A model generated the notes under the pieces. The model ran no database searches, was not told the DNA's origin, and was given only the letters and a program-made list of their open reading frames with translations. Below, piece by piece: positions 6,235 through 57,617 of a stretch of DNA of 64,000 nucleotides. The position numbers and the translations under genes are program-made. This DNA is from an uncultured Eubacterium sp. (GTDB lineage: Bacteria > Bacillota > Clostridia > Lachnospirales > Lachnospiraceae). The stretch is from assembly GCA_947385875.1 (NCBI GenBank), contig CANDMV010000001.1, forward strand, positions 1-64,000, written 5' to 3'. Position 1 is the first letter of the stretch. Each line of letters starts with the position of its first letter.

Positions 6235-6337
6235 CCTCTTATTGTTCGATTACTCGCTCAGGTTGGCACCTTCCACGCAATGCAGGGGTTGCCGTGACTT
6301 CACAGATCCTTTGTATCTCCATCACTCTGAATAAGAG
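6235..6337 (-). promoter_or_regulatory. SAM-I (S-box) riboswitch aptamer
   Basis: Read on the minus strand, the leader of metK shows the S-box core: the P1 stem CTCTTATT pairs with AATAAGAG at the far end, followed by CAGAG-TGATGGAG, the GAAGTCACGGCAACC segment and AAGGTGCCAACCTG. Spacing and order match the SAM-I class. It sits immediately upstream of a hairpin-plus-T-run and of metK, so SAM binding should favour termination. A 62-codon open frame across this region is not a gene. Confidence 0.95.
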
Positions 6338-6449: not shown

Positions 6450-7186
6450 ATAATGGAAAACCGGACGCCGGGTGAGGGAAGTTGTGCCGTCTTCCTGTGA
6501 CTTTTACAGAATAATAAGAAACTCTAAGCATTCTGCATTTACACTGTGGTACCGTACGGTCGCGTCGCCTAGTCCGCCCTGGCGAAACGCCAGAAGCTAA
6601 AGGCACCGCTGCGGCTTCGCCGCCTGTTTTTCGAGCAGAATACTAAGAGTTTCTAAATATTCTTCCAACGTCACAGAAAGACGGCACAACTCCCCTCACC
6701 CAGCTGTTATTGATAAGCCTTACTAATGAAAACACTAACTATACTAACAAAACTTTTAGCTGTGAAACGCTGTCCAGAAATCATTAAATGGATACAACTT
6801 CAGACAAAATATTCATGCAGCAACTGTCTGCAGTAGAAGTATCAGACTATGAATCTTAGTCAGCTAGCGGCTCACAGCTAAAAATTCTGCCGATGTATTA
6901 TCGTTTTCATTGAAAGGCTTATCAAAAACAGCCGGGTGAGGGGAGCTGGACCGTCTTCCGGCGACGTTGGAAGAATGCTTAGAAGCCCTTAGTATTCTGT
7001 TCGATACACAGGCGGCGAAGCCGAAGCGGCACCTTTAGCTTCCGGCCTTAGGCCGGGGGGCGAACTAGGTGCCGCGACCGTCCGGTGTCACAGCGTGGAT
7101 ACAGAATGCTTAGGGATTCTTAGCATTCTGGAAAAGTCGCCGGAAGACGGTCCAGCTCCCCTCACCCGGCGTCCGGTTATCCATTC
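6450..7186. repeat. 737-bp nested imperfect palindrome made of two inverted family A elements
   Basis: The gap between metK and murA contains no gene but a giant inverted repeat. The outer left arm reads TAATGGAAAACCGGACGCC, and its reverse complement recurs at 7165-7186. The inner junctions also mirror each other: GATAAGCCTTACTAATGAAAAC at 6712-6733 against GTTTTCATTGAAAGGCTTATC at 6903-6923. Each half (about 6460-6706 and 6930-7176) is itself a long hairpin: GGGTGAGGG...GCCGTCTTCC...GTGAC at one end and its inverse at the other, around a GGCGGCGAAGCCG core. The central 200 bp has a further inverted match (TTTAGCTGTGA / TCACAGCTAAA). Related copies occur elsewhere in the window. Confidence 0.85.
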
Positions 7187-14335: not shown

Positions 14336-14628
14336 TCACCCTGACCAGAAACCGCCGACTGGATACAGTCTTTTAATTGTGAAACGCCGGCCGAAAATCG
14401 CTGACTTGATATAGCCGTTACAGATAGAATATTCATGGAATGTATCCATCGCTTACGTAGACTTAGGCGCAAAGTCTCTGTCCCGCGTCTTAGTCGGAGT
14501 TAGCGATTAGTTCACCGCAATGTTGCTCCAGTCCGCGCAGAGAATGAGCCGCCAGACAAATCCGTCCAACCAGACGCAGAATCATCAGGGAGGTCGCTAA
14601 GTTAATGACATTGGGTGTGAAAAGTAAC
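14336..14628. repeat. Family B element with inverted ends, 293 bp, abutting the mfd stop codon
   Basis: The left end GTTACTTTTCTCACCCTGACC and the right end GGGTGTGAAAAGTAAC are imperfect inverted repeats. The interior carries GAGCCGCCAGACAAATCCGTCC (also at 53356-53377) and GGTCGCTAAGTTAATGACATTG (also near 53240 and 53410). The right end finishes one base before the mfd stop codon at 14630. There is no coding capacity, and the structure is MITE-like. No target-site duplication is evident by eye. Confidence 0.65.
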
Positions 14629-48341: not shown

Positions 48342-48490
48342 TTTGTAACTATTTTGTGTCCCAATATCATTCGCTTAACGGCCTCCTTGACGATTCTACG
48401 TCTGGCGGAACGGATTTGTCTGGCAGCTTATACTGTGTGCGGACTGGAGCAACACTGTGATGAACTAACCGCTAAGGTCCTGCCCGCTGA
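48342..48490. repeat. Family B/D-like repeat between nadB and nadC
   Basis: Starts GTAACTATTTTGTGTCCCAATATCATT and contains GGCCTCCTTGACGATTCTACGTCTGGCGG and ACGGATTTGTCTGGC, which match 53251-53300 and (inverted) 14546-14580. It is a degenerate copy inserted between two genes of one operon; no coding capacity. Confidence 0.6.
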
Positions 48491-53110: not shown

Positions 53111-53239
53111 CATTCTCTCACCCTGCACATCTGTGCCCTTTCTTTTTATTCTCACATATTATACACAAAAATATTCTAAAATGCAATACTATATTTCATT
53201 CAAAAAAAGCAATCGGTCACAATTCCTGACTCGTAAATC

Positions 53240-53440
53240 AATGTCATTAACTTAGCGACCTCCCTGACGATTCTGCGTCTGACGGGATGGATTTGTCTGG
53301 CGGCTCATGATTTCACCTCCATTAAAAACGCTCCTTAAACGTCCTTACAGAGTATGAGCCGCCAGACAAATCCGTCCCGCCAGACACAAAATCTGGTTAT
53401 GTAAGGCTTAAGTTAATGACATTGCCCGTAAATAGTAACT
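53240..53440. repeat. Composite repeat with 29-bp hairpin arms (family B/D)
   Basis: Outer arms ATGTCATTAACTTAGCGACC (53241) and TTAAGTTAATGACATTG (53409-53425) are inverted. Inner arms at 53281-53309 (GACGGGATGGATTTGTCTGG...) and 53354-53382 are also inverted and encode the GAGCCGCCAGACAAATCCGTC core shared with the element at 14336-14628. A degraded family C half (TTCAGCCTTCGGCTTCACTGTAACG) follows at 53446-53470. It is non-coding. Confidence 0.7.
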
Positions 53441-53632
53441 ACAGTTCAGCCTTCGGCTTCACTGTAACGAAATCAGACTCATTGAAAGTTTACTGCAGTT
53501 CAATATTTTCAATTAATTACATAAAAAACTAGCTTGTAAACAATTATTGTCAGTATGTAAACTAGTATATACTTGCCTTTTCAAATTCAATCTGCGATAC
53601 TGAGCATAACAAAGCAAAAGGAGGTCATGCTT

Positions 53633-54067
53633 ATGAAAAAACTTTTTATAATCCCTTTATTATGTGCTTCTCTTTTTTTTGGTTCTACTTCAGCATTTGC
53701 GGCAGAGCCTATTGAAGTAGAAGGTCCTGTTCGGCAGACCGTTGCAGCTGCAGGAGACGGAAGAACTCGTGCTTCTTGGGGACAAGGTAAGTTAACACAC
53801 GCCAACCCTCTTGGCCGTAAGCCATGGGCTTACGCAACTTCTTCTACTTACTCAGGAACTTGTTTCAAAATTAAAGCAAGAACAAAAGTAATCAGCGACG
53901 GTCAGACAGATTACACATCTTGGGCTGTTAAAGAAAACGCTTCCTCTGTTACATCTGCTACAATGATTGCAAGAACAGAAGAAAACGTAACTTTTAACGG
54001 ACTTCACGAATTTAAGGATACTTCATCTTCCGGTTGGCAATACGCTACAACATCTGCAAGCTATTGA
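53633..54067 (+). CDS. Small secreted protein of unknown function
   Basis: A 144-residue protein with a textbook signal peptide, MKKLFIIPLLCASLFF ending AFA-AEP (cleavage near residue 24). The mature part of about 120 residues is rich in Ser, Thr, Ala and Tyr, has a single Cys, and shows no membrane helix (ASWGQGKLTHANPLGRKPWA; YTSWAVKENASSVTSATMIA; SSGWQYATTSASY). It recalls small secreted bacteriocin-like or beta-sandwich proteins, but I recognise no family. AGGAGG eight bases before the ATG at 53633 fixes the start. Its stop overlaps the start of the next gene (TGATG), so the two are translationally coupled. Confidence 0.7.
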   Translation: MKKLFIIPLLCASLFFGSTSAFAAEPIEVEGPVRQTVAAAGDGRTRASWGQGKLTHANPLGRKPWAYATSSTYSGTCFKIKARTKVISDGQTDYTSWAVKENASSVTSATMIARTEENVTFNGLHEFKDTSSSGWQYATTSASY

Positions 54068-55017
54068 TGTTCCATAAGTCTTTGAAAAAAACTGCAGTCA
54101 TAGCTATTATGTCTACGGCTGCAGCTTTTTTCATATGTTTTTCTTATTTTGGGTTGAATAATCGTGTATCCCATTTACAAAATCCGGAAGATGAACATTT
54201 AATTGGGAATGGCGTTTATTTCAACATTTTTACAGACAAAACCAGAAATGAAAAAACTACCGGTATCTTTTCCAAAGTTGATAATAATACTATATTTTAT
54301 GCATCTATTCAAAACTCTGGCAAAGACCGCCATATGAAATTAAAAGGTTACTTAAATTATTTCAATTCGCCGCTTGAATTTTTAGACACATCCTATAGCG
54401 AAGATGACATCTATTTACTAGACGGAGATAATATTTTAATACCTTTTAAAATCACATCTACAATCAAACCAGATACAAACTACAAACTCCTACTTTCTCT
54501 GTTTATTGGAACTGACCAATACGAAGAAACTATGCATTACCAAACCACGCAGCATACACTATCTTACGATTATTTTATTCAAAACACTTCAGACAGCCAG
54601 ACCGTTAATTTAACTATGAAAGAAGATGAGAATACTCAATACACCCTTTTAGACTTTCCTGGAGTTGTTTTAAATACAGATTTCAAGAATACTGCATCTG
54701 TAAAATTACCTCCATATAAGTTAACGGTAAAAGCCGGAGAATCATTTAAATTATCTTATAAAATAGGACACATAACAGGAAATCATACATTGCTGCTTGT
54801 GACTATCAATTATCAGCAAGCAGTTATGAATAACAATGCTGCTGCACTACTAATAAATACACCTGAAGATTATCTGGCCTCTGGCATAATCACCCTTACA
54901 GCGCCAAGTAAAAAAGGGAGATATGAAGTGTGTGCTGTTGCAATTCCGTCTCCTACGCTGCCAAATGTTTTTGAACTACTGGAAAATGCTTACCGCTTCA
55001 CATTATATGTCCAGTAG
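54067..55017 (+). CDS. Membrane-anchored extracytoplasmic protein of unknown function
   Basis: A 316-residue protein that starts at the ATG overlapping the upstream stop codon, without its own ribosome site. It has a signal anchor at about 9-28 (AVIAIMSTAAAFFICFSYFG) and a large Asn/Thr/Tyr-rich, probably beta-structured, outside domain (GYLNYFNSPLEFLDTSYSED; KLPPYKLTVKAGESFKLSYK). It has no catalytic motif that I recognise. Base composition is AT-rich compared with the housekeeping genes. The coupling implies that the secreted small protein and this anchored one work together, for example as factor and partner/immunity, but that is a guess. Its 3' end overlaps the convergent regulator gene by 20 bp. 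Confidence 0.7.
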   Translation: MFHKSLKKTAVIAIMSTAAAFFICFSYFGLNNRVSHLQNPEDEHLIGNGVYFNIFTDKTRNEKTTGIFSKVDNNTIFYASIQNSGKDRHMKLKGYLNYFNSPLEFLDTSYSEDDIYLLDGDNILIPFKITSTIKPDTNYKLLLSLFIGTDQYEETMHYQTTQHTLSYDYFIQNTSDSQTVNLTMKEDENTQYTLLDFPGVVLNTDFKNTASVKLPPYKLTVKAGESFKLSYKIGHITGNHTLLLVTINYQQAVMNNNAAALLINTPEDYLASGIITLTAPSKKGRYEVCAVAIPSPTLPNVFELLENAYRFTLYVQ

Positions 55018-55537
55018 CCAACGTGTTTGAAAAAGCTCTAGAAGGCATACTTGTCGTTTTAGGAACTTCACAATAAAAAAAATATAATAATCCAAACGAA
55101 ATTGCAATATTTAAGACAATGAGTATTGCAATTTTTTTTGAAAAATTATTTTTATACAATCTTTTTGTCAAATAATAGCTCCAATAAAAAGGTATCAAAA
55201 AATGCTTTATATTAATTTTTATTTCAACAATGTTTTCGACTTCCAATTCTGCATCATTCAACCGTACTAAACTTCCATGTTCGATCTCATTGATCTCTAG
55301 TGGTTTTTCACATTTCTTTTCTTCTACATCTGCTGCATTTTTATTTTCTAAAAGATCGCTTGTATCCATCTCATATAATTCACATATTTTTTTAAAATTT
55401 TCTAAATCCGGCAAACATACATTATTTTCCCATTTGGATATTGACTGCCTAGAAATAAGTAGTCTCTTAGAAACCTCCTCCTGCGACATATTCTTCCCTT
55501 TTCTGGCTTCCTTTAATTTATTCCCTAATGTCCCCAT
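54998..55537 (-). CDS. XRE-type regulator with C-terminal membrane helix
   Basis: A 179-residue protein: Xre/Cro helix-turn-helix (GNKLKEARKGKNMSQEEVSK, RLLISRQSISKWENNVCLPDL), an acidic linker, then a basic stretch and one membrane helix (about 146-166, IAILIVLNIAISFGLLYFFY), with a short outside tail. GGAGAG before the ATG at 55537 sets the start; the open frame extends 35 codons further. XRE-TM proteins often sit beside small membrane or secreted-peptide genes and regulate them. It is convergent with the secreted/anchored pair and overlaps the latter by 20 bp at the 3' ends. Confidence 0.85.
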   Translation of the reverse strand: MGTLGNKLKEARKGKNMSQEEVSKRLLISRQSISKWENNVCLPDLENFKKICELYEMDTSDLLENKNAADVEEKKCEKPLEINEIEHGSLVRLNDAELEVENIVEIKINIKHFLIPFYWSYYLTKRLYKNNFSKKIAILIVLNIAISFGLLYFFYCEVPKTTSMPSRAFSNTLATGHIM

Positions 55538-55660: not shown

Positions 55661-56485
55661 CTAACTTTCCAAATACCTCACCATTTTCCCATGAGCCCGC
55701 GCATAATCGATCTCTGACCTTGTGCTCTCCCCGATATATCCTCCGACATTAATTACAAATATTTCATCTGACAGATCAATCTTCCGTTTATGCATATCAT
55801 CCAGCATCTCTTTTGTCCTTGTCAGCGTGCCCTCATCCATATTCTCCCATACTTCCGAATCACCGCCATGCCCAAAAAGCCCTACTGAAATTACAATATT
55901 TCCTTCCAGAGTCAGCTGTTTTTGTACTTTGATAAATTCTTCTTTAAACCTAGTACTTCCACACAATGTAACTACCGGATATTTTCTGTATGGCACAAAT
56001 TCATCCTGATAGCTGATTCTGCTTGGATGTCTCGGCTTATGCCCTTTCTTGTCCCGTATACAGTATACTTTATCAGAAAACTGTAATAAATATTCTAATG
56101 CCCTCTGCTTTGCTTTTAAATAACGATCTTCAACTCCCCACGCAGCCACAATCACATCTGCATCACACAAAATCTGCTCATGTCTTTCCCAACGCACTTG
56201 CTGAGATTCATCAATTCCTTCCTGCTCTGTCGAAACCGTCTCGAACAGGTTAATCATTATCAGTTCCCCTATATCATACTGATACAAATACCTGCTGATT
56301 TTTGTCAGAGTCAAATCACTATGATGATCACAGGCTGTGCTTGGATTTATCCCAACTACTACTGCCTTTCGACAAGAATCAGGGTTAATTTGCACTTTAA
56401 TACTGATCCTTCTATTATCTTCAAACACGCTGTCAAATGGATCAACTATTAATTTAGAATTTAATTTATACTTTTTTTGAAACAT
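55661..56485 (-). CDS. DUF1643 fused to a nucleoside 2-deoxyribosyltransferase-like domain
   Basis: A 274-residue two-domain protein. The N-terminal 150 residues are DUF1643-like (RKAVVVGINPSTACDHHSDLT, LIMINLFETVSTEQEGID, DADVIVAAWGVEDRYLK, GHKPRHPSRISYQ). The C-terminal part begins VVTLCGSTRFKEEF (171 on) and continues ISVGLFGHGGDSEVWE and SDEIFVINVGGYIGESTRSEIDYA, the Rossmann-like pattern of nucleoside 2-deoxyribosyltransferases and their relatives. The STRSEIDYA motif supplies the expected catalytic Glu region. It lies 10 bp from the HipA-like kinase gene and is probably cotranscribed after it. Nucleotide/nucleoside metabolism or defence are both possible; function unknown. Confidence 0.75.
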   Translation of the reverse strand: MFQKKYKLNSKLIVDPFDSVFEDNRRISIKVQINPDSCRKAVVVGINPSTACDHHSDLTLTKISRYLYQYDIGELIMINLFETVSTEQEGIDESQQVRWERHEQILCDADVIVAAWGVEDRYLKAKQRALEYLLQFSDKVYCIRDKKGHKPRHPSRISYQDEFVPYRKYPVVTLCGSTRFKEEFIKVQKQLTLEGNIVISVGLFGHGGDSEVWENMDEGTLTRTKEMLDDMHKRKIDLSDEIFVINVGGYIGESTRSEIDYARAHGKMVRYLES

Positions 56486-56495
56486 AATTTATCTG

Positions 56496-57617
56496 CTATT
56501 CTATAATTCCTAATTCCTGAATTCTCCCATATACTTTTTCAAATACATGTTTCAGTCCCCGATAACTTTTACTCTTTGCCAGCCTAATAAATGCTTCTTC
56601 ATTGAACTTGAGATCTGTATATTTTACAAACTTAAACGCAAGCTCTCTTAATGTCTCTGTCGTATTAAACATCTGACTGAGCGTATCCCTCGCATCACAT
56701 TCAAAATAATCAGCAACCAGCGCACAGTTAAAATCAAACAACGGTGCCAGATGCTCAATCACACCCGTATTATTATTCATCAAAAAACCGTAATTTTGTG
56801 TATGCCGATCCGTATTAATAATTATATAATCTAATACTGGTATCGTGGCAAATTCACTTCCCCAGCGATCCAGACAATATTCCCGGAAGTCAATTCCACG
56901 CCTCTTACAGTACTCTATGACCTCCCACGCTTCAATAAACGAATGCTCTTCCTTGACAAAATTCTGACAGATTGAGACATATGCCGTACCGCTTGCAGTA
57001 TCTTTTATATCGCTTAAATATACGATACTGTCAATCCGGTTTTCGAAGCATTCAAGAATCTCGGAAGCCAAAATCTCCATTCTTGTATTTACATAATCAT
57101 TTGTCTTATCCGACTTTAATAGATACAAACTGTCACCCAGGTAAATCCATCCTTTTCGAAACAGCCCTTTCGTCGTCAGCTCCGGACAGATTGGATTTGT
57201 CGTCAATGTAGGGCTGAACCCCGTTAAAGACAAGTCTATAATATCCCGCAGCTTGTTCTGCCTGATATTAATCTTTGACCAGTCTGTCTTTTCATCATCA
57301 TCCTTGACCCAAAAACTGTCAATAATTGATACTCCCTTGCAGCTGATGCAGATATTCACCCTGTTATCTATAGAATCTACCTGTGGTATTTGAAATGCCG
57401 CATAAATCTGCTTTGCATTATCCCTTGATAAAGACAGCACTCTGCTGCTTAAATAATCTTTGACTGCTTGTACATTATGTAAAATATCCTTTAACTTCGT
57501 CGAAAGCCTTATATTCGATCGAAGACAGAATGGCAGGAGATCGTTTCGAATTACTTCTACGACAAAATCCTCCATATCAAAATAAAGTATTTCCGTATTC
57601 TTTAGCATTAAATACAT
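56496..57617 (-). CDS. HipA-like Ser/Thr kinase-fold protein
   Basis: A 373-residue protein with the HipA_C kinase pattern: YLGDSLYLLKSDK region, then the catalytic loop YIIINTDRHTQNYGFL (Asp and Asn of the kinase site) and the metal-binding APLFDFNCAL. The N-terminal 150 residues lack a clear HipA_N/HipB-binding domain and carry KGVSIIDSFWVKDDDE, a segment typical of stand-alone HipA-like proteins of Firmicutes. No hipB-like HTH gene adjoins directly; the nearest is the XRE-TM gene 2 kb away. It is followed 10 bp later by the DUF1643-fusion gene. The target of phosphorylation is unknown, and a toxin role should not be assumed. Confidence 0.8.
   Translation of the reverse strand: MYLMLKNTEILYFDMEDFVVEVIRNDLLPFCLRSNIRLSTKLKDILHNVQAVKDYLSSRVLSLSRDNAKQIYAAFQIPQVDSIDNRVNICISCKGVSIIDSFWVKDDDEKTDWSKINIRQNKLRDIIDLSLTGFSPTLTTNPICPELTTKGLFRKGWIYLGDSLYLLKSDKTNDYVNTRMEILASEILECFENRIDSIVYLSDIKDTASGTAYVSICQNFVKEEHSFIEAWEVIEYCKRRGIDFREYCLDRWGSEFATIPVLDYIIINTDRHTQNYGFLMNNNTGVIEHLAPLFDFNCALVADYFECDARDTLSQMFNTTETLRELAFKFVKYTDLKFNEEAFIRLAKSKSYRGLKHVFEKVYGRIQELGIIE

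What the first reader, a model, noticed from the sequence alone, without database searches (positions are those of the whole stretch)
53633..55537. Possible new small system: secreted protein, coupled anchored partner and XRE-TM regulator
Three genes not matching a family I know form a compact unit. The secreted 144-residue protein and the anchored 316-residue protein are coupled by TGATG; a membrane-bound XRE regulator converges on them with a 20-bp 3' overlap. The upstream region has palindromic TGTAAAC motifs (53533-53570) that may be the regulator's operator. This could be a secreted effector with surface partner, a bacteriocin/immunity pair or a cell-surface sensing system.
Basis: inference. 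Interest (0 to 1): 0.62.

Follow-up and report, generated by a model that had tools for sequence, protein, structure and literature searches.

The report
Secreted toxin–anchored immunity gene pair
A gut-type bacterium carries a small mobile set of genes that most likely makes a secreted antibacterial protein, a partner protein fixed outside the cell membrane that protects the producer, and a membrane-bound switch that controls them; neither of the two main proteins belongs to a described family.

Summary
In detail: A (144 aa, Sec signal), B (316 aa, one N-terminal membrane anchor), joined by TGATG, and C (XRE regulator with a C-terminal transmembrane segment) converging with a 20-bp overlap. 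The refuting test fails. A rumen Lachnospiraceae MAG has the whole trio (A 82%, B 68%, C 58% identity) in other surroundings, with dN/dS 0.09–0.17. Neither protein matches Pfam, NCBIfam, PHROGs, PADLOC or PDB sequences. A was never found without an adjacent B; B is often found without A, and A was lost twice with B kept. In several relatives B is a lipoprotein. I therefore read A as a secreted bacteriocin-like toxin, B as an extracytoplasmic immunity protein, and C as the regulator. The 'palindromic' TGTAAAC motifs are 9-bp direct repeats with a 21-bp pitch, seen only in loci with C. Function is inferred; nothing was tested on cells. The module resembles lactococcin 972 and TslA/TilA in logic but fails the lactococcin 972 membership tests: a new variant of a known kind.

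The parts
53633..54067 (+). Gene A: 144-aa Sec-secreted protein, mature part ~120 aa, proposed toxin
   Evidence: all-beta in a low-confidence model
54067..55017 (+). Gene B: 316-aa protein with one N-terminal anchor and ~290-aa ectodomain, proposed immunity protein
   Evidence: lipobox in five relatives
54998..55537 (-). Gene C: XRE regulator with one C-terminal transmembrane segment and short conserved outer tail (VPKTTSxPS)
53534..53542 (+). Operator box 1, TTGTAAACA
53555..53563 (+). Operator box 2, ATGTAAACT, 21 bp from box 1 (9-12-9 geometry)
53573..53601 (+). Candidate promoter TTGCCT-17-GATACT, 9 bp downstream of box 2; same layout in L014 and L016 (inferred, weak consensus)
   Evidence: not picked by the consensus scan
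53618..53626 (+). Ribosome-binding site AAAGGAGGT of gene A (position approximate)

Best explanation
A-B is a mobile toxin-immunity module. A is exported by Sec, its signal peptide is removed, and the ~120-residue beta-rich protein acts on the envelope of neighbouring Gram-positive cells. B stays outside the producer's membrane on an N-terminal anchor (a transmembrane helix here, a lipid in several relatives) and binds A before it reaches its target, so the producer and relatives carrying only B are protected. C, a DNA-binding protein held in the membrane, reads the direct-repeat operator upstream of A and adjusts A-B expression to a signal outside the cell, possibly the state of A or B. Shown: gene structure, conservation, co-occurrence, selection, loss pattern, anchors. 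Inferred: killing, binding of A by B, and what C senses.
For: Every A found lies next to a B: window, L016, S. ventriculi L017 and JB2 plasmid L005, Acetivibrio L006, G1068, G074. In the Sarcina loci the two genes are divergent, so adjacency is not just shared transcription. In one phylum sample of 398 genomes B was found in 5 (a sixth hit, G738, is spurious) and A in 1. A was lost twice with B kept: L014/L015, where A's first codons are fused to B with B still under constraint (dN/dS 0.22), and the JB2 plasmid, where A has an in-frame stop while B is intact. Orphan B genes occur in G705, G1124, G1125 and G837, and as a tandem pair in G1068, as immunity genes do (G705 and G837). B has a lipobox instead of a TM anchor in G837, G705, G947 and both tandem G1068 copies, so its place outside the membrane is what is kept. 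B is mostly acidic (net -5 to -26, one exception at +7) while most A are slightly basic. Settings fit antagonism: a 9.8-kb plasmid, flanking recombinases, a 2.4-kb block at 99.4% identity in two MAGs with different flanks, an agr system beside B in G947, and FtsX/MacB-type ABC genes beside B in G710 and G629.
Against: No antibacterial activity is known for A, and it has no recognisable relative among bacteriocins or catalytic motif. Both structure models are too poor to use (pLDDT 36 and 43). B beside BlaI/BlaR1 without A could have another job. In G710, G947 and G967 the secreted neighbour of B is not clearly homologous to A. In the window A is at least as constrained as B, with no sign of diversifying selection.
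Confidence: 0.6

Rival explanations
1. Surface-display pair: B is a membrane-anchored holder that retains A on the cell surface as an adhesin or coat component, in the manner of WxL proteins and their WxL-interacting partner.
For: A is secreted and beta-rich; B is a large anchored ectodomain; the pair is tightly linked. One insignificant structural hit of the poor A model is a WxL-interacting protein.
Against: No WxL motif or DUF916 match. B stays intact and constrained after A is lost, and occurs as tandem orphans, unexpected for a mere holder.
Confidence: 0.2
2. Sensing system: A is a secreted signal or bait, B its surface receptor, and C the membrane-bound regulator that receives the message.
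For: C has a cytoplasmic HTH and a transmembrane end with a conserved outer tail. The operator is present in the four loci with C and absent from the loci examined without it. Other loci place B beside agr or BlaR1 genes.
Against: Most A-B pairs have no C. A signal does not explain repeated loss of A with B kept.
Confidence: 0.13
3. B is a general envelope-stress or inhibitor-binding protein, and A is one of several secreted clients that share its locus by chance of mobility.
For: B beside BlaI/BlaR1 and ABC genes without A; different secreted neighbours in G710, G947 and G967.
Against: A was always adjacent to B in six different loci or lineages, in two orientations.
Confidence: 0.07

Closest known systems
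Lactococcin 972 family (including mediterrocin of Mediterraneibacter gnavus, PMC12345188)
   Same: Small Sec-secreted antibacterial protein, no modification, often plasmid-borne, found in Bacillota including Lachnospiraceae; ABC genes accompany B in G710 and G629.
   Different: A is longer (~120 vs 66-89 aa mature), does not match the family by Pfam or hhalign, and its partner is a single-anchor ectodomain protein instead of the multi-span DUF1430 protein.
TslA/TilA of Staphylococcus aureus (PMC10941976)
   Same: The immunity protein is anchored on the outer face of the membrane and neutralises a toxin acting from outside; orphan immunity genes are typical of such toxins.
   Different: TslA is a lipase secreted by type VII; A has a Sec signal and no lipase match in Pfam. 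No sequence relation found in the libraries searched.
SdpC/SdpI/SdpR of Bacillus subtilis
   Same: Secreted toxin, membrane immunity protein and linked regulator (from general knowledge).
   Different: SdpI is a multi-span membrane protein and SdpR an ArsR-type repressor (general knowledge); B has one anchor and C is an XRE protein with its own TM segment.
LytTR-controlled bacteriocin promoters (PMC6193735)
   Same: 9-bp direct repeats separated by 12 bp, lying a few bases (4-11 bp in S. mutans) upstream of a -35 box.
   Different: Box sequence ATGTAAACA does not fit the LytTR consensus as I know it, and the linked regulator is XRE.

Membership tests
Lactococcin 972 family | Sequence match to the family profile | tested here: not met
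   No such Pfam/NCBIfam match for four A proteins at E up to 5-10; hhalign of the A profile with two members E 0.09 and 0.16 over 9 and 1 columns
Lactococcin 972 family | Adjacent multi-span DUF1430 membrane protein | tested here: not met
   B has one N-terminal anchor and no Pfam match; compare pBL1
Lactococcin 972 family | Sec signal peptide on a small secreted protein | tested here: met
   Hydropathy and N-terminus; no dedicated signal-peptide predictor was available
Lactococcin 972 family | Beta-sandwich fold like 2LGN | tested here: inconclusive
   A model pLDDT 43, no PDB match below E 0.001
Lactococcin 972 family | Inhibits growth of other bacteria | not testable with these tools
   Needs an assay
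Toxin-immunity pairs in general | Toxin gene not found without immunity gene; immunity gene found alone | tested here: met
   (samples of genomes, not all)
Toxin-immunity pairs in general | Partner protein neutralises the toxin | not testable with these tools
   Needs co-expression or binding assay
WxL / WxL-interacting protein system | DUF916 domain in the anchored partner; WxL motifs in the secreted one | tested here: not met
   No Pfam match; no W-x-L in window A
SdpC/SdpI/SdpR | Multi-span SdpI and ArsR-type SdpR | tested here: not met
LytTR-regulated bacteriocin promoter | 9-12-9 bp direct repeats just upstream of a -35 box | tested here: met
   with PMC6193735; promoter hexamers are weak
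LytTR-regulated bacteriocin promoter | LytTR consensus and a LytTR regulator | tested here: not met
   Box reads ATGTAAACA; linked regulator is XRE; other regulators of the genome not examined

The most novel reading that the evidence does not exclude
A founds a new family of secreted antibacterial proteins in Clostridia and other Bacillota, neutralised by a new family of outer-surface immunity proteins and coupled to several sensing devices (XRE-TM, agr, possibly BlaI/BlaR1), with immunity genes spreading on their own as a cheater strategy. In the window, C could sense toxin-bound B across the membrane.
Probability: 0.4. Interest if true: 0.75.

Novelty: new variant of a known kind. Interest (0 to 1): 0.55.

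Why it matters
If right, it adds an unannotated class of secreted antibacterial proteins in gut and rumen Clostridia, with a surface-borne immunity gene that can mark hidden bacteriocin loci and predict which strains resist. B is the better search handle, since it is more widespread than A. It also gives a compact case of a membrane-bound XRE regulator tied to a two-box operator.

Tried and rejected
The single-protein scan of genome contigs and five scans of viral contigs found no relatives, and phage records gave none, so a phage origin has no support. AlphaFold on B alone and on A with four sequences gave unusable models; Foldseek on A gave only generic beta-sandwich hits above E 0.01 and I draw nothing from them. 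G738's B hit lies inside a prenyl synthetase-like ORF and was dropped. The weak A hit in G034 sits in a 737-aa frame and was not used. G072's weak B hit covers only the anchor end and was not followed. I considered an inverted-palindrome operator and rejected it for direct repeats. My first motif search used the wrong spacing and found nothing. Type II toxin-antitoxin was rejected because A is secreted and B is outside. Homology of A to the secreted neighbours of B in G710, G947 and G967 is not established.

Full report
Observation. A (53633-54067, 144 aa) has a typical Sec signal; B (54067-55017, 316 aa) starts on the last base of A's stop codon (TGATG) and carries one N-terminal hydrophobic anchor; C (55537-54998, minus) is an XRE protein with one hydrophobic stretch near its C terminus, and its 3' end overlaps B by 20 bp. 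A and B match nothing in Pfam, NCBIfam, PHROGs or PADLOC above noise, nor any PDB sequence.

Co-occurrence. tblastn against plasmids found both A and B on one 9.8-kb plasmid of Sarcina sp. JB2, there divergent. Profiles then found the pair in Acetivibrio alkalicellulosi, S. ventriculi, and genomes G1068 and G074. The full trio A-B-C in the same order is present in a rumen Lachnospiraceae MAG, L016, with A 82%, B 68% and C 58% identical; its flanks (UvrB-like gene upstream, a RhuM-type gene downstream) differ from the window's (an ABC ATPase gene upstream, DUF1643 and HipA-like genes downstream). Between window and L016, dN/dS is 0.09 (A), 0.17 (B) and 0.11 (C), so all three behave as functional genes.

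Asymmetry. In a phylum sample of 398 genomes B was found in five genomes after removal of one spurious hit, and A only in the window's own. A directed search of twelve genomes, eleven of them from the B searches and G422 from the A search, found A at E below 0.001 only in G422, G1068 and G074, each time next to B. B without a detectable A occurs in G705, G1124 and G1125 (behind BlaI/BlaR1 in G705 and G1124), G837 (BlaI/BlaR1 divergent), G629 (beside an ABC transporter) and as a tandem pair in G1068. Two losses of A with B kept are visible. In L014 and L015, A's promoter and first codons run straight into B; the junction shares TGAT with both ends of the missing piece, and B still has dN/dS 0.22 against L016. 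On the JB2 plasmid A is interrupted by an in-frame stop while B is intact; an intact copy of A exists in S. ventriculi. This is the pattern expected of an immunity gene.

Place of B. B carries a lipobox in G837, G705, G947 and both tandem G1068 copies, and a TM anchor elsewhere. The common factor is an ectodomain held outside the membrane. TilA of S. aureus, a lipidated protein on the outer leaflet that binds and blocks a secreted toxin, shows that such immunity exists (PMC10941976).

Mobility. L014 and L015 share a 2,435-bp block at 99.4% identity with unrelated flanks, which points to movement unless the MAG assemblies are at fault. The Sarcina pair lies between resolvase-type genes and on a plasmid. 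In Acetivibrio the pair sits near repeated transposase-like ORFs and a ParA-like gene (named by eye from the translations, not tested against a library).

Regulation. TGTAAAC occurs at 53535 and 53556. In the rumen loci the boxes are identical 9-mers (ATGTAAACA) 12 bp apart; 0 and 2 of 500 shuffles of those upstream regions reach that match, against 31 of 500 for the window's 8-of-9 match, so the support comes from conservation. The site is unique in the genome. Nine bases further lies TTGCCT-17-GATACT, in the same layout in the relatives; the hexamers are weak. The 9-12-9 geometry is that of LytTR-controlled bacteriocin promoters (PMC6193735), but the sequence is not LytTR-like and the linked regulator is XRE. 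The repeats are present in the four loci with C and absent upstream of A in the loci examined without C, which favours C as the binder; these four are also the closest relatives, so this is not independent proof. C's terminal tail VPKTTSxPS is conserved.

Comparison. The nearest known kind is the lactococcin 972 family, which includes a Lachnospiraceae bacteriocin, mediterrocin (PMC12345188). A fails the sequence tests for it and B is not a DUF1430 protein. The fold test is inconclusive because the model is poor. It works like a bacteriocin-immunity pair but is not shown to be a member of any named family.

Limits. Toxicity, A-B binding and C's signal are inferred. G947's pair sits inside an agr locus (LytTR regulator, GHKL kinase, AgrB), which fits a competition gene but rests on an uncertain A. 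No search of the paper library that I ran showed this pair described; the library is partial.

Noticed in passing
window 53239-53424: A ~186-bp MITE-like element with 16-bp perfect terminal inverted repeats (CAATGTCATTAACTTA) and 40-nt inner arms, just upstream of the operator; another perfect end at 14598-14613 and degenerate ends near 48362 and 60240.
   Followed up: partly
window 6236-6337 and 6503-6668 (minus): A SAM riboswitch and a TwoAYGGAY RNA motif lie close together.
   Followed up: no
window 55661-57617 (minus): DUF1643 protein followed by a HipA-like C-terminal-domain protein (below the Pfam cut-off) downstream of the trio.
   Followed up: no
L019 5215-11508 (G710): Three FtsX/MacB-type permease ORFs, a B relative, a cysteine-containing secreted 154-aa protein and an ABC ATPase form one cluster; possibly a related but distinct system (two permeases tested by Pfam).
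   Followed up: partly
L039 4759-9241 (G947): A small secreted protein and a B lipoprotein sit inside an agr locus, between an AgrC-like kinase and AgrB; no AgrD was looked for.
   Followed up: partly
L014 and L015 5425-7859: A 2,435-bp block carrying B and C at 99.4% identity in two rumen MAGs with unrelated flanks; its ends and mode of movement are unexplained.
   Followed up: partly
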